From assembly GCF_009372235.1 (NCBI RefSeq), contig NZ_ML762920.1, positions 651,298 through 715,297 on the forward strand: a stretch of 64,000 bases of DNA, read 5' to 3'. Below, piece after piece: positions 29,823 to 42,650 of this stretch (positions are counted from its first letter, which is position 1; each line of letters opens with the position of its first letter). The position numbers and the translations under genes were made by a program. This stretch comes from Dickeya oryzae (GTDB lineage Bacteria; Pseudomonadota; Gammaproteobacteria; Enterobacterales; Enterobacteriaceae). The notes under the pieces were generated by a model. It was not told where the DNA came from and searched no databases. It saw nothing but the letters and a program-made list of their open reading frames with translations.

Positions 29823-30956
29823 TTAGCGTTCGTTCACCGACGCGGTGAAACCTAACCGGTTCAGTTGCTCGGCACTTTCGCGATCAGCGCAGATGACATG
29901 CAACGATGACCACTCGCGCCGCTCCTGATAGCACTTACGCAACCGGTCGAATTCACCGGGAATCTGAGCGACCTGACGCAATAAGGCATCATCGCGGCGC
30001 ACATCATACACCAGATGCACCAGTCGTTTGAGTTGATACTCATCGAGTGGCACCGTCAGGGCCACCTCCGCCAGTTCCGGCGTCGGTAGCAACGACGACA
30101 AGGCGACCTGCTGCGGTTGACCGATAAAACGGCTCCAGGCTTCGAACACCTGCGTGGTGCCGCGTGCTTTGCCTTCCAGCGTATAACCGGCGATATGGGC
30201 CGTACCGATATCAACGCGCTCCAGCAGTTCAAGAGATAACTCAGGCTCGGGTTCCCACACATCCAGCACCACGCTAAGGTGTTGGCCGCGTTTAAGGGCA
30301 GCCAACAAGGCAGCGTTGTCCACCACCGGCCCGCGACAGGCATTAATCAGGATGGTGCCAGCTTTCAAGCGCGCCAGCAGTGCGGCATCCACACAATGTA
30401 AGGTGGCATAAGGCCCCGCTTTCAATAGCGGTGTGTGGAACGTCAGCACATCAGCCTGCTCCACCACCTCGTCTAGCGATACAAATGACCCTTCGTCACC
30501 GCGATCCGCCCGCGGCGGGTCGCACAGCAACGTCCGCACCCCCAGCGCCGTCAACCGGTCATTGAGGCGAGACCCCACGTTCCCTACCCCGACGATCCCA
30601 ACGGTACGGTCTGTCAACGCAAAGCCATCACGTTCTGCCAGCATTAACAGCGCGGAAAACACATACTCGACCACCGCAATCGCATTGCAGCCGGGGGCGG
30701 CGGAAAACGCGATCCCCTGCTGGCGCAGAAACGCTTCATCCACATGGTCGGTGCCCGCGGTTGCCGTACCGACAAACTTTACCGCTTTGCCGCTCAGCAG
30801 GTCAGCATTCACTTTCGTGACTGAGCGCACCATCAGGGCATCCGCCCCGTTCAGGGCCTCTGTCGGAATCGGGCGGCCCGGTACCGCCGTTACCTCGCCA
30901 AGGCGGCTGAACAGCGTCTGAGCGTAAGGCATATTTTCATCAACAAGGATTTTCAC
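29823..30956 (-). CDS. pdxB: Erythronate-4-phosphate dehydrogenase PdxB
   Basis: Second enzyme of the DXP-dependent pyridoxal-phosphate pathway; oxidises 4-phosphoerythronate. It has the D-2-hydroxyacid dehydrogenase fold: NAD loop [16 protein letters not shown], catalytic Arg in NACRGPVVD, Glu in VWEPEPELS and His in [10 protein letters not shown], plus the C-terminal PdxB dimerisation domain. I place the start at GTG 30956 because it gives the family N terminus ([11 protein letters not shown]) and AGGA lies about 8 nt upstream. The resulting 377 residues compare with 378 in E. coli. In E. coli the next gene outward is flk; here about 12 kb of accessory genes intervene. Confidence 0.96.
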
Positions 30957-31077
30957 GTTGGCTTTCCTGATAGACCGCTGACGACACCCGCGTCGCCGCG
31001 ACAAAACGAAGGGCGTTATTCTGCCATAAACCAACCGCTGGTAACACTGACGAGCGGCATCGGTTCATGATGGCTAT

Positions 31078-32337
31078 TCAGCTTACTGGCAGGCCAGCAA
31101 CACGATCAAAATAGATTTCGGGGTCAATCACCACCGTCCTTGCTCGCATCAGTGACAATCGCCTGAAAAATGGGCTACCGTGCGCAATAATCGGCAGCAA
31201 TGCCGCGCCGATAGCAGCGGCCTCAGCCCCCAGTCTGGCATGTTCCAGTCTTGGCATATGTCTTACTTTTCTGGCAGCCACAGAGGGAAGTAATGGATAA
31301 GTACGATCCACCAGCGATGCGAAAAGTGCGGGAGGAAGACATCCGCCGATTAAAATTTTTTGGGGATCAAACATGTTTTCAATGATTGAAACCAGAATGC
31401 GCAGACGTTTACTGTTGAGTTCAAGCCATGCCATCAACTCACTGTTGCGTTGCTGATAGAGCGAATTAAGAAAATCTGGCTGTTCAAGTGCGCTCAAATC
31501 CACTGCCAGGGTAATAGCCAGTTCTTCTAATGAAAAAGGGGTCACATCAGCCGCAACAGGTTGTAGTTCTGATGGCCAACTTAGTAAGCCAATCTCACCG
31601 GCATTGTTGAAGGCACCTTGAAACGGCAAACCGTCAACGATAATCCCGGCACCGAGTCCATGACCAACAAAAATATAAACATAGTGGGTAAGCCCAACTG
31701 CCGACCCAACCTGGCGTTCAGCAAGCGCCGCCGCCGTCGCGTCATTCTCTACAATGACCGGCATGCCGCACAACGCTTCAACAGCATCAGCTGTCGGCAC
31801 ATGGCTCCATGCCTGCCATCCAGGCGATCCTACATACTTCTCGAAGTCAGCCTCTTGCAAAGTTGGCATTGCGATACCCGTCCCCCATACAGGGACACCT
31901 TCACATTCCTGGGAAAGTTCGGCGACAAGCTTGGCGATGTTGCTAATACTCGCCTCAGGGTTTTGCCATGATACAGGCGCAGTTCTGCGAGCTAGCTCGC
32001 ATGCAAACAGGTCGCACGCAACAGCAGTGATACCATTTCGATCCAGATGAACACCAAAAACACAGCCAGCACGTGCATTGAGTCGTAAAAACTTCTGTGG
32101 AGCCCCACGGCGGTTGGTTGAGCGCCCCTCTTCAATTAGTAAACCCCGTTTAAGCAAATCTTGAGTGATATTAGCGATAGTTTGCGGTTGTAACCCAGTG
32201 CTCTCGACAAGGTCACTACGGGATAATTCCCCTGTAGTTCGTAGTAGATCAAACACCAGTCGGCGATTGTACCGACCAGAATAAGCATGATTGTTACCAG
32301 TATGCACGACAGCACCTTCGCTCTTTATTATTTCCAT
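31078..32337 (-). CDS. ROK-family (NagC/XylR/Mlc type) transcriptional regulator
   Basis: Probable sugar-responsive repressor of the divergent importer operon. A winged-helix N domain (about residues 22-85, LVFDLLRTTGELSRSDLVESTGLQPQTIANI) is followed by a ROK sugar-kinase-like domain with VENDATAAALAERQVG and VGHGLGAGIIVDGLPFQGAFNNAGEIG. The zinc-binding CxCGxxGC motif of classical ROK proteins is absent after AGEIG, so metal binding and possibly ligand recognition differ. Start is uncertain: ATG 32337 has no ribosome site, while an in-frame GTG at 32307 has AAGG 7 nt upstream. The gene has visibly lower GC than its housekeeping neighbours. Confidence 0.88.
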   Translation of the reverse strand: MEIIKSEGAVVHTGNNHAYSGRYNRRLVFDLLRTTGELSRSDLVESTGLQPQTIANITQDLLKRGLLIEEGRSTNRRGAPQKFLRLNARAGCVFGVHLDRNGITAVACDLFACELARRTAPVSWQNPEASISNIAKLVAELSQECEGVPVWGTGIAMPTLQEADFEKYVGSPGWQAWSHVPTADAVEALCGMPVIVENDATAAALAERQVGSAVGLTHYVYIFVGHGLGAGIIVDGLPFQGAFNNAGEIGLLSWPSELQPVAADVTPFSLEELAITLAVDLSALEQPDFLNSLYQQRNSELMAWLELNSKRLRILVSIIENMFDPQKILIGGCLPPALFASLVDRTYPLLPSVAARKVRHMPRLEHARLGAEAAAIGAALLPIIAHGSPFFRRLSLMRARTVVIDPEIYFDRVAGLPVS

Positions 32338-32503
32338 TAAATAGATAATAAAATCTTCGTTTTTATCGTGTCCAGCTAATTAAAATTTCAAAAAAATGGC
32401 TTTTGTCATCATAACTTCACCTTAATTTCGTCTAATGCCCTTCATCACCGACTTAATAAAACCATTTAGTGGATTTAATTTTTTGTCTGGAGTTTATCCC
32501 GCT
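32338..32503. promoter_or_regulatory. Divergent promoter region, ROK regulator / ABC operon
   Basis: An AT-rich 166-nt spacer between the divergent regulator and importer genes. It must hold both promoters and, by analogy with other ROK systems, the operator. A/T-rich half-sites around 32375-32400 are the most likely place, but I cannot define a box. Confidence 0.5.
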
Positions 32504-33460
32504 ATGAGCAAGCAGCATATTCATCTTACTGCGTTAACCATTGTTACTGCTTTATCTGCCATAAACGCTACGGCTGCAGAACTGGTCATCTACACTTCTC
32601 ATGGAGAAACGACCTCCGCACCTGTTCTTGACGCGTTTAAAAAGACGTACCCAGACATTAACGTGACAGTCGTACGTGGCGGTACAGGGGACGTGGTTGA
32701 ACGTATACGTGCAGAGACAGCTAATCCAACGGCTGATGTGCTTTGGGGCGGGCCTATCCAGACATATGAAGAGAACACGGCTCTTTTCCAGCCTTTTCAA
32801 AGCGACACAGATGCGAGCATGGTGACCATAGATCCACAGCATATCTGGCACCCTTTTACTCTGCTTTTGCAACCCATTATGGTCAGCACAAAACGAGTCT
32901 CCCCGGCCGATATGCCGACGTCTCAGGTTGATCTCGCTCGCGATAAATGGAAAAAATTAGGTGCGCTGATTATTCCAGATCCCGCACGTTCAGGGACGGG
33001 GTATACCATTGTCTCTGCGCTGGCTGGCCAGTTCGGCTGGAATTTTATCAATCGTCTCGTCAAAGATGTCCGTATTGCTCCCGGTTCGGACGATGCATTC
33101 AACGCCATACGCGATGGAGAAGCGGCCATTGGTTGGATCAATGAAGATTTAGGTGCCAAATGGACGGCAGATGGCCTGCCAATCAAAATTATCTATCCGA
33201 CTGATGCCATTACCGGCCAGATTGACGCACAGGCGATTGTGGCAAACGCACCACATATCGAGCAGGCCAAAATCTTTATCGACTTTCTTGGCTCGAAAAC
33301 AGCGCATGAACGGGTACGTGACGCAACCGTCCGCCGCTCAGCCCGTATAGATATAGCGCCTCCCGCCGTTCTGCCGAATGTGAGCCAGCTCAATATTATT
33401 TCCCCACAGGATCCTAAACAGGTTGTCGTCGCACGCTTTCAGGCAGCAGTCGCCAAATGA
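32504..33460 (+). CDS. Periplasmic binding protein, Fbp/Afu-type ABC transporter
   Basis: Extracytoplasmic solute-binding protein of the iron(III)/thiamine/sugar-phosphate cluster (SBP_bac_6/11 type), 318 residues from ATG 32504. GGAG lies about 11 nt upstream; the ATG-like start 23 codons earlier has none. A signal peptide (about 1-25, ending NATAA) precedes ELVIYTSHGETTSAPVLDAFKKTYP. The anion-binding strand IPDPARSGTGYTIVSAL is shared with AfuA. The paired tyrosines that bind ferric ion in FbpA are not seen in the expected C-terminal part, which argues against iron. Substrate by inference is an organic or phosphorylated compound. First gene of a four-gene operon. Confidence 0.88.
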   Translation: MSKQHIHLTALTIVTALSAINATAAELVIYTSHGETTSAPVLDAFKKTYPDINVTVVRGGTGDVVERIRAETANPTADVLWGGPIQTYEENTALFQPFQSDTDASMVTIDPQHIWHPFTLLLQPIMVSTKRVSPADMPTSQVDLARDKWKKLGALIIPDPARSGTGYTIVSALAGQFGWNFINRLVKDVRIAPGSDDAFNAIRDGEAAIGWINEDLGAKWTADGLPIKIIYPTDAITGQIDAQAIVANAPHIEQAKIFIDFLGSKTAHERVRDATVRRSARIDIAPPAVLPNVSQLNIISPQDPKQVVVARFQAAVAK

Positions 33461-35466
33461 AGATACTTCGTGATCCCTGGCGACTGACAGCCATTATTGC
33501 GCTGCTCTTTTGCTGTACGACAATTTTACTGCCCCAGGCTCGCCTGCTGAGTGCCTCGTTGCTGGGAGACGGTGGTCGCTTTACCTTCGTTAATCGACCA
33601 ACCGGGCTCGAGGTTATACCCGAGATGTCCAACGGTTTTACCATCGCCATGAAACCAAATGGAAGTCTTGATGTTAGCAAGGGGGCGAACTTTCATCTCA
33701 ACTTTCTGGCACGAGATAAGAACAGTATTCTGATTCGAGGAACCGCTAATCCTCAATTCACCGTCCTGAATAACGGGGCATTACAGTTAGCGTCAGACGA
33801 CTTTTCACTGATAGTGAGCCAACAGACGCCGCGAGGCCTGTTTAACCGAACTACCGCCACACCACTGACTGCCATACGCCAATCGGATGGGGTGGTGGTG
33901 TTGCAACATGCGGCTAACGCCTATATCAGCATTGAAGAGCCCACCCTCTCTTTCACAGCGAGGCACTACCTTTCCTTCTTCACCCATGAGGAAACACGCA
34001 GCGCAACGCTTAACAGCCTGATGATTTCCCTGTGTGCAACGGCATTCGCCGCTATACTGGGCGTATCACTGGCTTACATGATTGCCCGGTTCCGGGTCAC
34101 TGGTTCAACGGCCATCATTCTGCTGGTCACCATGGCATCAGTATCCCCTCCCTTTCTGGGGGCTTATTCCTGGCGTCTGCTACTGGGGCACAACGGCATC
34201 ATCACTACAAGCCTTGGACTAACGACGTCTATTGTCGGCATTTATGGCGTTATCTGGGTGATTGCATGGCTTGTCTTTCCAGTCATCTTTCTTCTTAGTT
34301 ACAGCGCATTTCGCCGTGTCGATGCTTCACATATCGAAGCCGCAGAAAGCCTGGGTGCGACACCCTTACGTGTGCGGCTGTCGGTAGAGATTCCATTGGC
34401 TATGCCCGGTATTGTCACCGGCCTTTATCTGGCGACGATGGCCGCCCTCTCAGACTTCGGCACGCCGCGAATCATCGGCCTTGATCTGAATGTACTGCCA
34501 GTCTTGATTTACACCTCTTTTCTGAGCGAAGCAGGACGAAATCCTGCACTCGCGGCAACAGGTGCGGTGGTGCTGGTGGCCTTATCCAGCCTCTTCCTGA
34601 TGGCGCAACAAATCTATCTTGCCAGACGCGGCTATGCCGCCGTGTCATCAAGGCAGTCTGCACCAAGGGAACTATCTCGTTTGGGACATATCCTGACCCT
34701 ATCTTTTACCGCACTCGTTCTGCTCCTGGCGTTCGTACCACATATAACAGTTCTCATCACCAGTTTTGTAAAATGGCGCGCCGGGTTGCCAACAACCAGC
34801 CCAACGCTCGATAACTATCTGACAATGTGGAAAAACGGCCTGGCCTCAGCCTGGGTTACCCTTTCGCTGGGAGTTGCCGGAACATTACTGGCTTTCTCCG
34901 TCGGTATTGCCATTGCCTATATAGTGGTACGTAAACGCTACACGTTGATCGCACCTGTGCTTAACAACGTCGTCATGATGCCCTACGTCATACCAGGCAC
35001 AGTTCTGGGAATTGGACTGATACTTATTTTTAACCAAGCACCACTTCAGCTTACCGGTACGTGGTACATCCTGGTGCTGGCCTACGTTATCCGAAATCTC
35101 CCGTTTACCGTCAAAGCATCAGAGGCAGCCTTGCGTCAGGTGCACCCAGCACTGGATGAAGCGGCAATCAGCCTTGGAGCAAGACCCATCAGGGTATTTT
35201 TGACTATCACTGCGCCACTGATGCTGGCAGGCGCAGTGACTGGAGCAACGCTGACGTTTCTGCACATTGTGACGGAATTATCATCAACTATCGTGCTTTA
35301 TCGCCCCCCCTGGAAGCCCATGACAGCAGTAATCTTTGAAAATACGCTCGCAGATTCCGATTTCGGCGTCTGCGCAGCACAGACCATCATACTCATGCTT
35401 ATTGTTTATGTGCCCCTTTATATCGTTGTTCGCTATGGACAGTCGGAGAAAAACCGTCATGCCTGA
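33457..35466 (+). CDS. ABC transporter double permease (FbpB/AfuB type)
   Basis: Fused permease of 669 residues with two BPD_transp_1 modules. The EAA loops are at about 294 (EAAESLGATPLRVRLSVEIP) and 568 (EAAISLGARPIRVFLTITAP). Before the first module lie one membrane segment (about 11-28) and a hydrophilic stretch of about 150 residues, probably periplasmic (about 35-180). Iron-type FbpB/HitB permeases of about 500-550 residues lack this stretch; AfuB-like sugar-phosphate permeases are similarly long. It overlaps the upstream stop codon by ATGA and the next gene by 8 nt, so the operon is tightly coupled. Confidence 0.88.
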   Translation: MKILRDPWRLTAIIALLFCCTTILLPQARLLSASLLGDGGRFTFVNRPTGLEVIPEMSNGFTIAMKPNGSLDVSKGANFHLNFLARDKNSILIRGTANPQFTVLNNGALQLASDDFSLIVSQQTPRGLFNRTTATPLTAIRQSDGVVVLQHAANAYISIEEPTLSFTARHYLSFFTHEETRSATLNSLMISLCATAFAAILGVSLAYMIARFRVTGSTAIILLVTMASVSPPFLGAYSWRLLLGHNGIITTSLGLTTSIVGIYGVIWVIAWLVFPVIFLLSYSAFRRVDASHIEAAESLGATPLRVRLSVEIPLAMPGIVTGLYLATMAALSDFGTPRIIGLDLNVLPVLIYTSFLSEAGRNPALAATGAVVLVALSSLFLMAQQIYLARRGYAAVSSRQSAPRELSRLGHILTLSFTALVLLLAFVPHITVLITSFVKWRAGLPTTSPTLDNYLTMWKNGLASAWVTLSLGVAGTLLAFSVGIAIAYIVVRKRYTLIAPVLNNVVMMPYVIPGTVLGIGLILIFNQAPLQLTGTWYILVLAYVIRNLPFTVKASEAALRQVHPALDEAAISLGARPIRVFLTITAPLMLAGAVTGATLTFLHIVTELSSTIVLYRPPWKPMTAVIFENTLADSDFGVCAAQTIILMLIVYVPLYIVVRYGQSEKNRHA

Positions 35467-36520
35467 TATATACGATAACACCAGCCATCGCCGGGGGTGC
35501 GAAGTCGCTATTCAGTCTGTCTCGAAACGCTACGACTCGCACCTTGTGCTGCATGACATATCAATGACCATCATGCCGGGTGAGTTCTTTACGCTTCTTG
35601 GCCCATCAGGCTGCGGTAAAACAACGTTGCTTCGGGCTATTGCTGGTTTTCACCCCATCAATGATGGCCGTATCCTGTTTGATGGCGTCGACGTTTCGCA
35701 ACGCGCGCCGTGGGATCGTAATATCGGTTTTGTCTTTCAAAACTATGCGTTATGGCCGAATAAAACGATCTTCGATAACGTGGCTTACGGGCTTCGGCTG
35801 CGAAAAATACCCAGACAGGATATCCAGAAACGGGTACGTCTTGCTCTTGAGCAGGTGCAACTCAGTCATGTGGAAGAGCGCTATCCCGGCGAAATGAGTG
35901 GCGGCATGCAACAGCGGATTGCGATGGCCCGTGCGCTCGTTATCGATCCTCCGCTGCTGCTATTGGATGAACCCCTGTCGAATCTTGATGCCAAACTGCG
36001 AGTATCGCTGCGTCAGGAATTGCGCGAATTACAAAAACGCATCGGCGTTACCGCTATCTATGTCACCCACGATCAGGAAGAAGCCCTGGAACTCTCAGAC
36101 AGGATCGCTGTTATGCAGGGTGGAAAAGTCGAGCAATTGTCTGCGCCAGAAGTGCTTTATGCGCGCCCTGCCTCACGTTTTGTGGCTGAATTCGTCGGTC
36201 AGGCAAACTTTATCAAAGGTGTGATAACCGAACAGGGTTTTACTCCTGACAACGGTACCTGTCTTAACCTCTCTCATGCGTTTCATCGTGGCCCAGCCAC
36301 ACTGTTTGTTCGTCCAGAAAACGTGCATATATGCGAGGCAGGTCAGGGGCTCATTGACGGTATCGTCACTGATGTTCGTTATATCGGACGCGCTTGGGTC
36401 TATCGTCTGACGATCCCCGGCTGGGACAGCCTATGGGCAGAAGCAACCAGACGTATCGCTGTCGATAATAAGGTCGGTATCGTCTTCAATGAAACAACCT
36501 TTCTGGAAGCACACGCATGA
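35459..36520 (+). CDS. ABC transporter ATPase (FbpC/AfuC/PotA type)
   Basis: Cytoplasmic ATPase of 353 residues from ATG 35459. Walker A GPSGCGKT at 48-55, Q-loop FVFQNYALWPNKT, signature MSGGMQQR at 146-153, Walker B LLLLDEPLSNLDAK near 167, H-loop VTHDQEE. A C-terminal TOBE domain (about 250-353) is typical of the maltose/iron/spermidine group. The signature reads MSGGM, a small change from LSGGQ that is common in this group. It overlaps the permease gene by 8 nt and the phosphatase gene by ATGA. Confidence 0.9.
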   Translation: MPDIYDNTSHRRGCEVAIQSVSKRYDSHLVLHDISMTIMPGEFFTLLGPSGCGKTTLLRAIAGFHPINDGRILFDGVDVSQRAPWDRNIGFVFQNYALWPNKTIFDNVAYGLRLRKIPRQDIQKRVRLALEQVQLSHVEERYPGEMSGGMQQRIAMARALVIDPPLLLLDEPLSNLDAKLRVSLRQELRELQKRIGVTAIYVTHDQEEALELSDRIAVMQGGKVEQLSAPEVLYARPASRFVAEFVGQANFIKGVITEQGFTPDNGTCLNLSHAFHRGPATLFVRPENVHICEAGQGLIDGIVTDVRYIGRAWVYRLTIPGWDSLWAEATRRIAVDNKVGIVFNETTFLEAHA

Positions 36521-37320
36521 CAGACTACTCTCTGGATAACAGCCAACTGCTTCGCGTGGCCAAAAAGGCCGCCCAGGCCGGTGGGATTGAGCTATTAAAG
36601 CGCTTTGGCAAAATGAATGCGTCTTGTATCAGCAAAAAGGAACAAGCCAATTATGTCTCACAAGCCGACCTCGCCGCCGAACGTGCAATATTCAACACAT
36701 TAACGGAGGAAGCGGTAGGCTTTGGGCTCCTTGGTGAAGAAACAGGCTTTCAGGCTGGAACGCGTAAAGAGATGTGGGTTGTCGACCCCCTCGACGGAAC
36801 CAGTAATTTTATCTGGGGCATTCCATATTTTGCCGTCAGCATAGCGCTCTGCGACGATGAAAGAGAAATTCTTGGCGTAGTATACGACCCGCTGCGTGAA
36901 GAGTATTTCACCACCATCGCGGGAGAAGGAACTTACCTGAACGATCAACGAGTAGCGCGCTTAGCGGATAAATTGCCAGAAGAGTCACTGTGCTCACTCT
37001 CATTGCCCGTTCCGGGTCAACTGCGGGTGATAACACAGGATCAGCTATTCTCTGGGCTGACCCGCATTATGGCAGAGTCTGCCGGTGTCCGGCGGCTTGG
37101 GTCAGCCGCACTCGATCTCGCCTATGTCGGAGTCGGAAGACTGGACGCTTATTTTGAAGACAGTCTCAGTTATTACGATGTCGCAGCGGGTAAACTCATC
37201 GCCCAGGAAAATGGCGTACGGGTAAGCACATTCCATGGTGAAAAAGTACGGGAAGGTTCAGTGCTAGCCGCGCGCCCAAGCATTTATGACTGGTTCCGGA
37301 ATGCATTCTTATACCGGTAA
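36517..37320 (+). CDS. Inositol monophosphatase family phosphatase
   Basis: Magnesium-dependent phosphatase of the IMPase/FBPase superfamily, 267 residues. The metal motifs are present: GEETG at 73-77 (Glu ligands), the diagnostic DPLDGTSNF at 90-98, and the second signature YYDVAAGKLIAQENG near 217, where Tyr replaces the usual Trp of WDxAAG. Asp51 in SQADLAAE matches the first acidic position. The gene overlaps the ABC ATPase by 4 nt and is the last in the operon. This location suggests that it dephosphorylates the imported compound, which is inference. It could also be a histidinol-phosphate phosphatase-like enzyme. Confidence 0.88.
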   Translation: MTDYSLDNSQLLRVAKKAAQAGGIELLKRFGKMNASCISKKEQANYVSQADLAAERAIFNTLTEEAVGFGLLGEETGFQAGTRKEMWVVDPLDGTSNFIWGIPYFAVSIALCDDEREILGVVYDPLREEYFTTIAGEGTYLNDQRVARLADKLPEESLCSLSLPVPGQLRVITQDQLFSGLTRIMAESAGVRRLGSAALDLAYVGVGRLDAYFEDSLSYYDVAAGKLIAQENGVRVSTFHGEKVREGSVLAARPSIYDWFRNAFLYR

Positions 37321-37419: not shown

Positions 37420-38797
37420 TCAGGAGGAATCCTCCCCAAAGGCGATGCGTACCCGCAGTCCACCCAATGACGGGCAATCCAGCAGTTGAAGTCGGGCGTG
37501 ATGCCAGAGCGCGATATCCCTGACCAGTGCCAACCCCAGCCCGGCGCCCGGTAAACCGTGATGGTTATCTAACCGGTGAAATGGCCTCATCGCCTGCGCG
37601 CGTTCCAGTGTCGGAATCCCCGGGCCACTGTCGTCGATTTCCAGTTGCTGCGCCTGTACCCGAGCCGTCACCACGCCGCCTTGCGGTGTGTATTTCAGCG
37701 CATTATCCAGCAAGTTGGCGCACAATTCCGCCAGCAGTAACGGTTCACCACGAATCAGGCAATGCTCATCGCCTTCGTATCCCAGGTCGATCTGTCGGCT
37801 ACGCGCCTGTGGCAGGCGGGAAAAGCAGGCATCCCGCACCAGTTCAGCCAAATCCACGGTTTGCCAGATGTGTTCTTTGCTGTCTTGCGCTCTCAGGCGC
37901 GATAGCTGCAACAGACGATCGGTCAGTTGGATGGTATCGTCCAGCGTGGCGCTCATGCCGGTCAGGCTGTCACGCCACTGCGCAGGATAGGAGCTATTGA
38001 GCGCCACCCCCACTTGTGTTTTCAGCACTGCCAGTGGTGTTCTGAGTTGATGCGCAGCATCAGCGCCAAAACGTTCCTGCCGTTGAAGTACGCCTCTAAG
38101 CCTTGCCATATACCGGTTGAACGCCACCAGTAACGGCTGCATTTCAGACCAGGGTAATAACGGGGGCAACGGCGTCAAATCACCGGGCTCACGGCGCGCC
38201 ATCACCCCAGACAGCTGGCGCAACGGCCGCAACAATTTACGAAACAGCAGCAGCACCAGTAGCAGCGCCAGCAACACCAATGCGCTTTGGCTAATCAAGG
38301 CAATCAGCCATTGCTGGTGCGCAAAGGCCTCGCGGGAACGCAGCGTTTCCGCCACCAGAATCAGCACCATTCCTTCAACGCCCGACTCATTGACCGGTTG
38401 CCATAACGCCGCCACCCGGATAGCCCGGCCGTGATAATGCGCATCATAGAAATGGGCCAGCGCCGGATAATGTCGGGACAACGGGATACCACGCGGCAAC
38501 GGTGGCAGATCGTCATAACCAGAGAGCGTATTCCCCTGCGGGGTCAGGACCTGATAATACAGCTGGTCGTTCATGTTGCGCTCAAAACTATCCAGCACCA
38601 CCCAAGGCACATCCACCGCCAGTTGGCCGTTGCGTACCGTCAACCGCTCAGCCACGGTACGTGCCGACGCCAACAGCGTGCGATCATAAGCCTGGGTCGC
38701 CGCCGCTTTGGCGCTGTGGTAGTGGCTCCATACCGACAACGCCCACAGCAGCGCCATCGGCACACCGAGGTAGAGCATCAACTGGCCACGCAGCGAA

Positions 38798-38811
<14 letters not shown>
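37420..38811 (-). CDS. tctE: Sensor histidine kinase TctE
   Basis: Inner-membrane sensor of the TctDE pair that controls tricarboxylate uptake. From ATG 38811 (463 residues) the order is TM1 (about 8-27), a periplasmic sensor (about 30-165), TM2 (about 172-193), a HAMP-like linker, the HisKA box FGADAAHQLRTPLAVLKTQ with the phospho-accepting His, then the ATP domain with NLLDNALKYTPQGG, DSGPGIP and GAGLGLALVRDIA. The start overlaps the tctD stop by 14 nt. A longer open frame starting at 38853 is not needed. Confidence 0.93.
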
Positions 38812-39472
<661 letters not shown>

Positions 39473-39674
39473 CACCGTCAGCCTTTATCCACATTGGTTT
39501 CTCCTTTCATCACCCTATGGTGACCATTCTCCCTCAAGACCGTTCGTCTTTTTAAGCGACGGCAATCACATCCTGAACACATTTTCACTAACCGAAAGGT
39601 AACTGAAAGATTACTTCATTAACAATCCCTCAACATCCCCGTTCCGGGAACAATAAAAACAGGAAGAAATGACA
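39473..39674. promoter_or_regulatory. tctD-tctC divergent control region
   Basis: About 200 nt. It should contain the tctCBA promoter and TctD-binding direct repeats. A short dyad GTAA-N8-TTAC near 39600 and a perfect 11-bp palindrome GTTCCGGGAAC at 39641-39651, close to the tctC start, are the only structured elements I can point to. Neither is a known TctD box. Confidence 0.4.
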
Positions 39675-40652
39675 ATGAAAAAATACCTCGCCCTTTCCCT
39701 GCTGCTGTGCGGTTCGATTGCCACCGCCGAGACCAACCCGGCAACCGCACCGACACGTACCGAGTGCATCGCCCCTGCCAAGCCAGGCGGTGGATTTGAT
39801 TTGACCTGTAAATTGCTGCAGATATCGCTGCAAGAGACCGGCACGCTCACCAGTCCGATGCGCGTCACCTACATGCCAGGGGGAGTCGGCGCGGTGGCGT
39901 ATAACGCGATTGTGGCGCAACGGCCAGATGAACCCGGCACCGTGGTGGCCTTTTCCGGCGGTTCGCTGCTGAACCTGGCACAGGGTAAATTCGGACGCTA
40001 TGGCGTCGATGATGTGAAATGGCTGGCGGCGGTCGGCACCGATTACGGCATGATCGCCGTACGGGCCGATTCCCCTTATCAAACGCTGAAAGACTTGCTC
40101 GGTGCCATGCAGAAAAACCCCAGTCAGGTGGTGGTCGGGGCCGGGGCCTCTATCGGCAGCCAGGACTGGATGAAAACCGCGATGCTGGCGCGCCATGCAG
40201 GTATCAGCCCGCGCGACATGCGCTATGTGGCGTTTGAAGGCGGCGGTGAACCGCTGACCGCGATGTTGGGCGGACATGTGCAGGCAGTTTCCGGCGATAT
40301 CAGCGAAATGGTGCCCCACCTGCAAGGCGGCAAGATTCGCGTACTGGCAGTATTTTCCGAGCAACGCCTGCCGGAGCCGCTGGCCAGCATCCCTACGGCT
40401 AAAGAGCAAGGCTACGATTTAGTCTGGCCAATCATTCGCGGCTTTTATCTCGGCCCCAAAGTGAGCGAGGCCAGCTACCAGTGGTGGGAACAGGCATTCA
40501 AACACATCGCCACCACCGACGAATTCAAAAAACAACGCGACCTGCGTGGTCTGTTCGAATTCAACCTGACCGGACCAGCGCTGGATGCCTACATCAAAAA
40601 GCAGGTCGCGGATTACCGCGAGCAGGCGAAGCTGTTTGGGTTAGCTAAATAG
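39675..40652 (+). CDS. tctC: Tricarboxylate-binding periplasmic protein TctC
   Basis: Periplasmic citrate/tricarboxylate receptor of the tripartite tricarboxylate transporter (TTT) family, 325 residues. The signal peptide MKKYLALSLLLCGSIATA is followed by a mature part that matches Salmonella TctC nearly end to end (RTECIAPAKPGGGFDLTCKL, VTYMPGGVGAVAYN, AGASIGSQDWMK, AVFSEQRLP). AGGAAG lies 8 nt before ATG 39675; an ATG at 39669 is too close to the ribosome site. Confidence 0.96.
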   Translation: MKKYLALSLLLCGSIATAETNPATAPTRTECIAPAKPGGGFDLTCKLLQISLQETGTLTSPMRVTYMPGGVGAVAYNAIVAQRPDEPGTVVAFSGGSLLNLAQGKFGRYGVDDVKWLAAVGTDYGMIAVRADSPYQTLKDLLGAMQKNPSQVVVGAGASIGSQDWMKTAMLARHAGISPRDMRYVAFEGGGEPLTAMLGGHVQAVSGDISEMVPHLQGGKIRVLAVFSEQRLPEPLASIPTAKEQGYDLVWPIIRGFYLGPKVSEASYQWWEQAFKHIATTDEFKKQRDLRGLFEFNLTGPALDAYIKKQVADYREQAKLFGLAK

Positions 40653-40685
40653 CTGAATGTCAGCCGCTAAATAGAGGAGAAACAC

Positions 40686-41117
40686 ATGATGAGCGATCGT
40701 CTGTTTGCCGGGGTCTGGTTGTTGCTGTGTCTGATTGGCCTGGTTATCGGCTGGGAAATCCAGAGCGAATACAGCTACGAACCGGTTGGCCCTCGCCCGT
40801 TTCCCATCACGATTCTGGGGTTGATGGCGCTGTGTGCCGTGTTGATGTTGCTGCGTAAACCTGATGTCCTCGTCTGGCCTTCTGCTGTGGTTCGTCAGCG
40901 CTTGTTGCTGCTGGTCATCATGCTGGCACTGTACGCCTGGCTGTTTGAACCGCTGGGCTTTCCGCTGACCACCGCATTACTGGGTTGCGGTATCGGCATG
41001 TTGTTTGGCGCGGTGTGGTGGATGGCAGCGTTATCCGGCGCGGTCATGGGCATCTCACTGTTTTACGCCTTCGATAAACTGCTCGACGTCACGCTGCCCG
41101 CTGGCGCGTGGCTCTAA
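40686..41117 (+). CDS. tctB: Tricarboxylate transporter small membrane subunit TctB
   Basis: Small membrane subunit of TctABC, 143 residues with four predicted membrane segments (about 6-24, 39-55, 75-92, 98-130). AGGAG precedes the tandem ATG codons at 40686 and 40689. It lies between tctC and tctA in the standard order. Sequence identity is low in this family, so the call rests partly on context. Confidence 0.93.
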   Translation: MMSDRLFAGVWLLLCLIGLVIGWEIQSEYSYEPVGPRPFPITILGLMALCAVLMLLRKPDVLVWPSAVVRQRLLLLVIMLALYAWLFEPLGFPLTTALLGCGIGMLFGAVWWMAALSGAVMGISLFYAFDKLLDVTLPAGAWL

Positions 41118-41132
41118 CCGGGAGGCAGGTTC

Positions 41133-42650
41133 ATGGATATCTGGTCTTTTCTGATGCAAGGCTTTGCGGTGGCGATGACGCCGCAAAACCTGATGATTGC
41201 GCTGATTGGCTGCTTTATCGGTACCGTGGTCGGGCTGTTGCCCGGTTTGGGCCCGATTAACGGTGTGGCGATTCTGATGCCGCTGGCTTTCGCGTTGAAA
41301 CTGCCAGCGGAATCGGCGCTGATTCTGCTCGCGACGGTGTACCTCGGCTGTGAGTACGGCGGACGTATTTCTTCCATTCTACTTAACGTCCCGGGCGATG
41401 CGGGGGCAATCATGACCGCCCTTGACGGCTACCCGATGGCGCAACAAGGGAAAGCGGGGGTGGCGCTGTCGATTTCCGCTGTCAGTTCGTTTGTCGGTTC
41501 CAGTATTGCGATCCTCGGTATCATTTTGTTTGCGCCGCTATTGGCTAACTGGTCACTGGCATTCGGCCCGGCGGAATACTTCGCGCTGATGGTGTTCGCC
41601 ATCGCCTGCCTTGGCAGCATGATGAGTCACAATCCGCTGAAATCGTTTCTGGCCGCGCTGATCGGCTTATCGATGGCGACAGTCGGCGTGGACGCCAACA
41701 CCGGTGTCTACCGCTTCACCTTCGACAGTGTCCACCTGTCAGACGGGATTCAGTTTGTGGTGGTGGTCATTGGCCTGTTTTCCGTGAGCGAAATCCTGTT
41801 GATGCTGGAACAAACCGGTAGCGGACAAAAGCTGACCAGGGCCACCGGACGCATGCTGTTTAACGTTCGGGAAGGCATGCAGTGCGTTGGGGCGACATTA
41901 CGTTCTTCATTACTGGGGTTCTTTGTCGGTATCCTGCCCGGCGCGGGGGCCACTATCGCCAGTGCGATGGCCTGGATGACGGAGAAAAAAATCAGCGGCA
42001 ATAGCGACAGTTTTGGTAAAGGCGACATTCGTGGCGTGGCGGCACCGGAAGCGGCTAACAACGCCTCTGCCTGTGGTTCGTTTATCCCGATGCTGACGCT
42101 GGGTGTTCCCGGTTCCGGTACCACCGCGGTGATGATGGGCGCACTGACGCTGTACAACATTACGCCGGGGCCAGCCATGTTTACCGAACAACCGGATATC
42201 GTCTGGGGGCTTATCGCTGCCATGCTGATCGGTAACCTGATGCTGTTACTACTTAACCTGCCGATGATTGGCCTGTTTACCCGTATGCTGGCGATTCCGA
42301 TGTGGTTTCTGGTACCGACGATTGCTGCGATTTCCGCCGTCGGTGTCTATGCCGTACACAGCACCACCTTTGACCTGTTACTGATGGTCGGGCTGGGGGT
42401 GTTCGGCTACCTGCTACGCAAAATGCACTTCCCGATGTCGCCGCTGATCCTCGGTTTTGTGCTGGGTGAAATGCTGGAGCAGAACCTGCGCCGTGCGTTG
42501 TCCATCAGCAACGGCGGGTTATCCATCCTGTGGGAAGGGCACATCAGCCAGACGTTACTGGGGATGGCGGTGCTGATTCTGGTGGTGCCGCCGGTATTGA
42601 AACGCTGGCGACATCGCCGTGCTCAGCTTCAGTCCGTCCCTCGCACATAA
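41133..42650 (+). CDS. tctA: Tricarboxylate transporter large membrane subunit TctA
   Basis: Large permease subunit, 505 residues and about 12 membrane segments. The duplicated family motif is seen twice: GLLPGLGPINGVAILMPL near residue 35 and GILPGAGATIASAMAW near 266. EYGGRISSILLNVPGDAGA is also diagnostic. GGGAGG lies before the ATG. It closes the tctCBA operon, which imports citrate and related acids using a cation gradient. Confidence 0.96.
   Translation: MDIWSFLMQGFAVAMTPQNLMIALIGCFIGTVVGLLPGLGPINGVAILMPLAFALKLPAESALILLATVYLGCEYGGRISSILLNVPGDAGAIMTALDGYPMAQQGKAGVALSISAVSSFVGSSIAILGIILFAPLLANWSLAFGPAEYFALMVFAIACLGSMMSHNPLKSFLAALIGLSMATVGVDANTGVYRFTFDSVHLSDGIQFVVVVIGLFSVSEILLMLEQTGSGQKLTRATGRMLFNVREGMQCVGATLRSSLLGFFVGILPGAGATIASAMAWMTEKKISGNSDSFGKGDIRGVAAPEAANNASACGSFIPMLTLGVPGSGTTAVMMGALTLYNITPGPAMFTEQPDIVWGLIAAMLIGNLMLLLLNLPMIGLFTRMLAIPMWFLVPTIAAISAVGVYAVHSTTFDLLLMVGLGVFGYLLRKMHFPMSPLILGFVLGEMLEQNLRRALSISNGGLSILWEGHISQTLLGMAVLILVVPPVLKRWRHRRAQLQSVPRT

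What the first reader, a model, noticed from the sequence alone, without database searches (positions are those of the whole stretch)
31078..37320. Candidate uptake-and-dephosphorylation system for a phosphorylated carbohydrate
A ROK regulator is divergent from a four-gene operon with overlapping genes: an Fbp-fold binding protein without the ferric tyrosine pair, a long fused permease, an ATPase, and an IMPase-type phosphatase. AfuABC, of the same transporter family, is known to import sugar phosphates. A phosphatase as the last coupled gene and a sugar-type repressor fit import of a phosphosugar, phospho-polyol or inositol phosphate followed by dephosphorylation in the cytoplasm. Automatic annotation would probably call it an iron transporter.
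Basis: partly seen in the sequence, partly recalled or inferred. Interest (0 to 1): 0.72.

Follow-up and report, generated by a model that had tools for sequence, protein, structure and literature searches.

The report
Phosphate-ester importer with its own phosphatase
A small set of co-regulated bacterial genes, usually labelled as an iron transporter, most likely imports a phosphorylated sugar-like compound and then strips off its phosphate inside the cell; the exact compound is not yet known.

Summary
In detail: a ROK regulator (31078-32337, -) is divergent from four overlapping genes: binding protein, fused permease, ATPase and IMPase-type phosphatase (32504-37320, +). Public records call the permease an iron transporter. 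Iron is unlikely: the protein has no adjacent tyrosines, and the Tyr pair of the genome's own SfuA aligns with Asp-Leu. The phosphate-binding helix starts described for P5PA are kept (T61, T165, S195 invariant in 22 sequences); AfuA's His205-Asp206 are replaced. All five genes are together in 14 of 14 proteobacterial relatives (51-73% identity). Ten of 12 more distant loci (spirochaetes, Bacillota) carry an MGH1-like glycosidase after the ATPase, and three of these then an IMPase. Still more distant transporters carry an IMPase in 5 of 13 annotated regions, four of them from another IMPase clade, which favours repeated pairing. Two 19-bp operator-like sites lie between regulator and operon in 13 of 13 regions. 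The operon is an insertion beside pdxB. Best reading: uptake of a phosphomonoester, probably a sugar or glycoside phosphate, then dephosphorylation. The ligand is untested. It is a new variant of a known kind, part of a broader class of phosphatase-coupled Fbp-type importers for which I found no description.

The parts
31078..32337 (-). ROK-family transcriptional regulator, probable local repressor
   Evidence: PF00480 93 bits; orthologue in 14 of 14 proteobacterial loci
32330..32348 (.). operator-like 19-bp near-palindrome, regulator side
   Evidence: scores 14 of 19 to the shared motif (two unrelated places in the window also score 14); two best sites per region in 13 of 13 regions
32458..32476 (.). 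operator-like 19-bp near-palindrome, operon side (AAAACCATTTAGTGGATTT)
   Evidence: scores 15 of 19, the best in the window; 128 bp from the first site; spacings 107-110 or 128-131 in relatives
32504..33460 (+). periplasmic binding protein (signal peptide, type II fold), phosphate-type pocket T61/T165/S195
33457..35466 (+). fused (two-copy) ABC permease, 669 aa, with an extra domain (about residues 29-185) between the first and second membrane segments, no Pfam match
35459..36520 (+). ABC transporter ATPase with TOBE domain
36517..37320 (+). IMPase-type phosphomonoesterase, no signal peptide by inspection, GEE and DPLDGT motifs and the Asp of YYDVAAG present

Best explanation
An inducible ABC importer for an organic phosphomonoester, most likely a phosphorylated sugar or glycoside, coupled to its own cytoplasmic phosphatase. 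The binding protein holds the phosphate at three helix starts (inferred from structure and conservation) and hands the ligand to the fused permease/ATPase; the IMPase-type enzyme removes the phosphate in the cytoplasm, so the dephosphorylated product enters metabolism and Pi is released (inferred). The ROK protein, bound at two palindromic sites in the shared intergenic region, represses itself and the operon until ligand or product binds (inferred from the sites).
Confidence: 0.7

Rival explanations
1. Importer of a non-phosphorylated anionic glycoside such as glucosylglycerate or mannosylglycerate; the carboxylate occupies the anion site, and the IMPase has a side role.
For: The glycosidase beside distant relatives belongs to the MGH1-like family, whose characterised members include mannosyl- and glucosylglycerate hydrolases (PMC6608630, passages).
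Against: It does not explain the constant presence of the phosphatase in 14 of 14 loci or its pairing with distant transporters; phosphate-type pocket; GluglyHdase model far below cut-off (104 and 120 vs 550 bits).
Confidence: 0.12
2. 2-aminoethylphosphonate or other phosphonate importer (PhnSTU2 type).
For: phnS2, PhnU2 and PhnT2 are the best NCBIfam models; a 29% identical permease in Variovorax sits beside phosphonopyruvate hydrolase.
Against: All three models are under cut-off (121 vs 393, 142 vs 593, 371 vs 458 bits); no phosphonate-degrading gene among the annotated neighbours of L029, L030, L032 (the plasmid gene table is incomplete); a phosphomonoesterase would not help with a C-P bond.
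Confidence: 0.06
3. Ferric iron importer, as annotated.
Against: No adjacent tyrosines; the genome has a real SfuA; ROK regulation and IMPase do not fit iron.
Confidence: 0.03
4. Pyridoxal phosphate importer, since pdxB lies next door and P5PA is a close sequence match.
For: (6wce); pdxB at 29823-31034; a distant Paracoccus relative sits beside a His phosphatase and a PNP-oxidase-like gene.
Against: The operon is an insertion at pdxB: five of six relatives of the genus that were read have pdxB without it; no pdx gene among the annotated neighbours of L029, L030, L032; P5PA's ring-contacting His203 aligns with Asn.
Confidence: 0.04

Closest known systems
AfuABC hexose/heptose-phosphate ABC importer (Actinobacillus, PMC4546632, passages)
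   Same: Same fold and transporter type; phosphate-site residues Ser37 and Thr150 correspond to T61 and T165; also annotated as iron uptake at first
   Different: His205-Asp206 replaced by Asn-Glu; ROK regulator and dedicated IMPase beside it. The AfuB permease was not compared
P5PA pyridoxal-phosphate binding protein (PMC8427247, passages)
   Same: GGTG and SGT phosphate loops, three helix starts at the phosphate
   Different: Ring-contacting His203 aligns with Asn; no linked B6 genes except by insertion next to pdxB
PhnSTU2-type 2-aminoethylphosphonate transporters
   Same: Nearest NCBIfam models for all three transporter parts
   Different: Scores below curated cut-offs; phosphatase instead of C-P bond enzymes
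Distant Fbp-type ABC-IMPase operons: Sinorhizobium meliloti pSymB (L136), Rhizobium K102 (L133), Pantoea At-9b (L135)
   Same: Long fused permease (740-743 aa), ATPase, then IMPase in the same order
   Different: Permeases 27-29% identical over the shared part only; IMPases in another clade; two-component (L133) or LacI-type (L135) regulator nearby
NAD-dependent sulfoquinovosidase SqgA (GH188, PMC10755693, passages)
   Same: Best PDB match of the Gfo/Idh/MocA protein next to the ROK gene (13 of 13 alphaproteobacterial loci have that gene; one, L035, was compared with the PDB); EH and EKCCH motifs shared
   Different: 75 bits only; sulfonate-binding Arg not kept, by my count of the printed alignment; only weak matches in the window genome

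Membership tests
AfuABC sugar-phosphate importers | Phosphate-coordinating Ser37 and Thr150 positions | tested here: met
   Aligned with T61 and T165, invariant in 22 sequences; P5PA itself has Thr at the first position
AfuABC sugar-phosphate importers | Sugar-binding His205 and Asp206 (part of the motif used in PMC4546632) | tested here: not met
   Asn213-Glu214 by alignment with AfuA; N, E, D invariant in 22 sequences. Glu229 was not mapped with certainty
AfuABC sugar-phosphate importers | Binds and transports hexose phosphates | not testable with these tools
   needs ITC or thermal shift
Ferric FbpABC/SfuABC importers | Adjacent tyrosine pair binding Fe(III) (recalled) | tested here: not met
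   No adjacent Tyr in the window protein; YY of the genome's SfuA aligns with Asp-Leu
PhnSTU2 aminoethylphosphonate importers | Curated NCBIfam score | tested here: not met
   121.4/392.75, 141.5/593.25, 370.8/457.7 bits
IMPase-type phosphatases (PF00459) | Profile score and metal-binding motifs | tested here: met
   167.3 bits vs 27; GEE, DPLDGT, YYDVAAG (the meaning of the motifs is recalled)
SuhB inositol-1-monophosphatase (NF008027) | Curated NCBIfam score | tested here: not met
   151.7 vs 332 bits; clade of its own 100/100; another gene of the genome has the top PF00459 score, 254.8 bits
ROK repressors | Profile score | tested here: met
   93 bits vs 22.9
ROK repressors | Binds palindromic operators next to its own gene and its target | not testable with these tools
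   Candidate sites in 13 of 13 regions; binding itself needs an experiment
PLP importer P5PAB | Ring contacts Tyr103 and His203 | tested here: inconclusive
   His203 aligns with Asn213; Tyr103 was not mapped

The most novel reading that the evidence does not exclude
A phosphoglycoside uptake pathway with exchangeable glycosidase modules: one importer type takes up an intact phosphorylated glycoside, an IMPase removes the phosphate, and the glycosidic bond is cut by an MGH1-like (GH63-related) hydrolase in Bacillota and spirochaetes, by an SqgA-like NAD-dependent enzyme in Rhizobiales and kin, and by unlinked enzymes in Enterobacterales. More broadly, phosphatase-coupled Fbp-type ABC importers form a large, overlooked class of organic-phosphate scavengers filed as iron transporters.
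Probability: 0.35. Interest if true: 0.65.

Novelty: new variant of a known kind. Interest (0 to 1): 0.5.

Why it matters
If right, many genes labelled 'iron ABC transporter permease' in plant-associated and other bacteria are importers of phosphorylated carbon compounds with their own phosphatase, a route to carbon and phosphate that annotation now hides. The conserved neighbours (glycosidase, SqgA-like enzyme, operator pairs) make the ligand directly testable.

Tried and rejected
Iron transport: rejected on the tyrosines and the presence of a real SfuA. Phosphonate: rejected on scores and neighbours. Link to pdxB: rejected as an insertion site. A wider regulon: the operator pattern with one mismatch gives 4 places in the genome, two of them here, against 5 for the reversed control, so no further targets are claimed; the two others, and one extra place each in G432 and G433, were not read. 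The operator consensus was chosen by eye from the same regions that it then scored; single-base shuffles give a best score of 14 or less in 99%, and two unrelated places in the window (56670, 58877) also score 14. A glycosidase elsewhere in the genome: no MGH1-like match and only weak Gfo/Idh/MocA matches. Foldseek search 'pdb' was never accepted. No match of the permease gene in E. coli genomes by DNA. Ten paper searches listed no paper that I recognised as describing this gene set; I saw listings only, 20 of 38, and only open-licence PMC papers are searched. I recall, from no call, that an 'afuA' of S. meliloti is listed in phosphate-starvation regulons; the paper I looked up for this was not held.

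Full report
WHAT IS THERE. The window (64 kb, 53.7% G+C) carries a ROK regulator on the minus strand (31078-32337) divergent from four plus-strand genes that overlap at each junction: binding protein 32504-33460, fused permease 33457-35466, ATPase 35459-36520, IMPase-type phosphatase 36517-37320. The unit has 50.8% G+C against 56-57% in its flanks. The start of the binding protein is better placed at 32504 than at 32435: a signal peptide follows, and an operator-like site lies in between.

IT IS AN INSERTION. Nine genomes of the genus are held. I read the region in six besides the window (G1486 and G1488 were not read). G1490, the closest (flk 96% identical), has the ROK, binding-protein and IMPase genes at the same place (94-98% identical), with a gap between the last two of the right length for the permease and ATPase, which were not queried. 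The other five gave no match to these three queries: in G1485 and G334 pdxB is directly followed by the tct kinase gene; in G1489 a truncated tct set lies between pdxB and flk; in G1487 and G1484 pdxB lies next to flk. In wider samples the permease is rare: 1 of 198 family genomes, the window's own (E 1e-60); 2 of 369 of the class, the second 36% identical over residues 162-665 only (E 1e-80); 1 of 385 alphaproteobacteria and 1 of 297 in the family of G432, in both cases the chosen centre itself. These searches score only three to six candidates per genome.

RELATIVES. On plasmids, 21 records match the permease at 60-80%; I read four of them. The scan of genome contigs gave 22 loci. All five genes are found in 14 of 14 proteobacterial loci besides the window (L029-L042; the permease was the bait, and L032 matches it in two frames). 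Identity to the window is 51-73% in the 11 of these compared gene by gene, and the divergence of every pair of genes is correlated over the 12 loci (rho 0.62-0.89). They are one descent group, so this is one long-kept association, not fourteen. In 13 of 13 alphaproteobacterial loci a Gfo/Idh/MocA gene and a GNAT gene lie downstream of the ROK gene; the window and Pantoea lack both. The Gfo protein of L035 has as best PDB match the NAD-dependent sulfoquinovosidase SqgA, with the EH and EKCCH motifs shared but the sulfonate Arg not kept, by my count of the alignment (PDB codes in PMC10755693, passages).

DISTANT RELATIVES WITH A GLYCOSIDASE. The 12 loci L043-L054 are six spirochaetes, five Bacillota and one other (permease 45-50%; L054 is a fragment at 66%). 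In 10 of 12 a glycosidase follows the ATPase (by tblastn; Pfam MGH1-like in the three tested, L044, L045, L050). The seven complete ones aligned have 746-815 residues, with no obvious signal peptide. L043 lacks it, and L046 ends within the ATPase. [quoted passage not shown] In 3 of 5 Bacillota loci an IMPase follows the glycosidase (L050 whole, L052 and L054 cut by the contig end; L051 ends in the glycosidase; L048 has 386 bases left and no match). In 5 of 5 spirochaete loci with over 6 kb of further sequence there is none.

A CONTROL THAT BECAME EVIDENCE. To see whether a phosphatase is simply usual beside such transporters, I read 13 annotated regions around plasmid permeases of 26-32% identity (H24, H36, H37, H38, H41, H43, H47, H49, H51, H54, H58, H66, H67). 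H24 came; the others are a hand-picked part of the 40 spread rows, unannotated and near-duplicate rows being passed over. Three more regions without annotation were fetched and are not in the count. An IMPase lies directly after the ATPase in 5 of 13 (H47, H49, H54, H58, H67), a His or HAD phosphatase in 3 (H24, H37, H38), and none is annotated in 5, one of which is a phosphonate locus (H41); the plasmid gene table is incomplete. Of the unannotated ones, Neorhizobium (L088) has a weak PP2C-like match (26.2 bits, cut-off 24), a SIS protein and a ROK-family protein after a ROK-regulated transporter. In the IMPase tree (43 rows) the 13 window-type enzymes form one clade (100/100); four of the five distant ones lie in another (98/99) with two IMPases from the genomes of L035 and L040, whose neighbours I did not read; the fifth (Shinella) has a long branch and no sure place; the Bacillota pair is a clade of its own (99/98). 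The deepest branches are weak (78/90), so the number of pairing events is uncertain; the tree favours more than one.

REGULATION. In 13 of 13 regions examined (L032 and L041 were left out) the intergenic stretch holds two near-palindromic 19-mers like TAATCCATTTAATGGATTA, scoring 13-18 of 19, the third best never above 11. Spacing is 107-110 or 128-131 bp, two classes about two helical turns apart, as expected if the two sites must face the same way, for instance for looping. The motif was chosen from these regions, so the score is partly circular, and two unrelated places in the 64-kb window score 14, as much as the weaker site; the pairing and spacing in all regions are the stronger point. 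Genome-wide no further site stands out from the control.

HOW IT MOST LIKELY WORKS. Shown here: gene order, co-conservation, pocket residues, phosphatase motifs, operator-like pairs, insertion. Inferred: the binding protein captures a phosphate ester; the permease and ATPase import it intact; the IMPase releases phosphate; the ROK protein responds to ligand or product. The sugar part is inferred from the ROK family and from the glycosidases beside relatives. The glycosidases also suggest that in some lineages the ligand is a phosphorylated glycoside whose bond is cut after import. The window genome has no MGH1-like match and only weak matches to the alphaproteobacterial Gfo protein, so that step, if it exists there, is done by something else.

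NOVELTY. AfuABC and P5PAB are known importers of the same type; a phosphate-ester importer with its own phosphatase and local ROK control is a variant of that kind. The long permease is not unique: four of the five distant IMPase-linked permeases have 740-743 residues, but their N-terminal parts do not align with this one by BLAST. Ten paper searches listed no description that I recognised. What would be of wider interest is the class: phosphatase-coupled Fbp-type importers labelled as iron transporters.

CHECK. On re-reading the calls I corrected the residues aligned with the ferric tyrosine pair (Asp-Leu, not Glu-Asp), softened 'repeated pairing', limited the G1490 claim to the genes queried, and added the other places that score 14 for the operator motif.

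Noticed in passing
L085 6698-13821 (same genome, contig 8): A second ROK-regulated ABC transporter followed by a glycerophosphodiester phosphodiesterase and an IMPase: looks like uptake of a glycerophosphodiester, then two-step dephosphorylation. Its IMPase is not in the window-type clade (long branch).
   Followed up: partly
L136 4287-8404 (Sinorhizobium meliloti pSymB): Long permease, ATPase, IMPase in a row: the same layout in a species used as a laboratory model, with an IMPase of another clade.
   Followed up: partly
L088 2587-10654 (Neorhizobium): ROK-regulated transporter of the same type followed by a weakly PP2C-like protein, a SIS-domain protein and a ROK-family (kinase-like) protein.
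   Followed up: no
L086, L128, L129: Distant relatives in Paracoccus, Azospirillum and Pseudochrobactrum with His or HAD phosphatases after the ATPase; two of the three next to a sigma-54 regulator and an ATP-binding (sensor-like) protein.
   Followed up: no
L043 7876-8622: A His-phosphatase gene just upstream of the binding protein in the one distant locus (UASB270) that lacks both glycosidase and IMPase.
   Followed up: no
window 37420-42650: Two-component pair divergent from a tripartite tricarboxylate transporter set (TctC and TctA by Pfam, a small gene between); lost or truncated in three of the six relatives of the genus that were read.
   Followed up: no
L032 10001-11994: The permease of this Rhizobium plasmid matches in two frames and is not annotated, a probable frameshift or sequencing error.
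   Followed up: no
window 33541-34011 (permease residues 29-185): Extra domain between the first and second membrane segments without Pfam match; the N-terminal 199 residues are only 22-47% identical to relatives, against 45-69% for the whole permease; fold unknown.
   Followed up: partly
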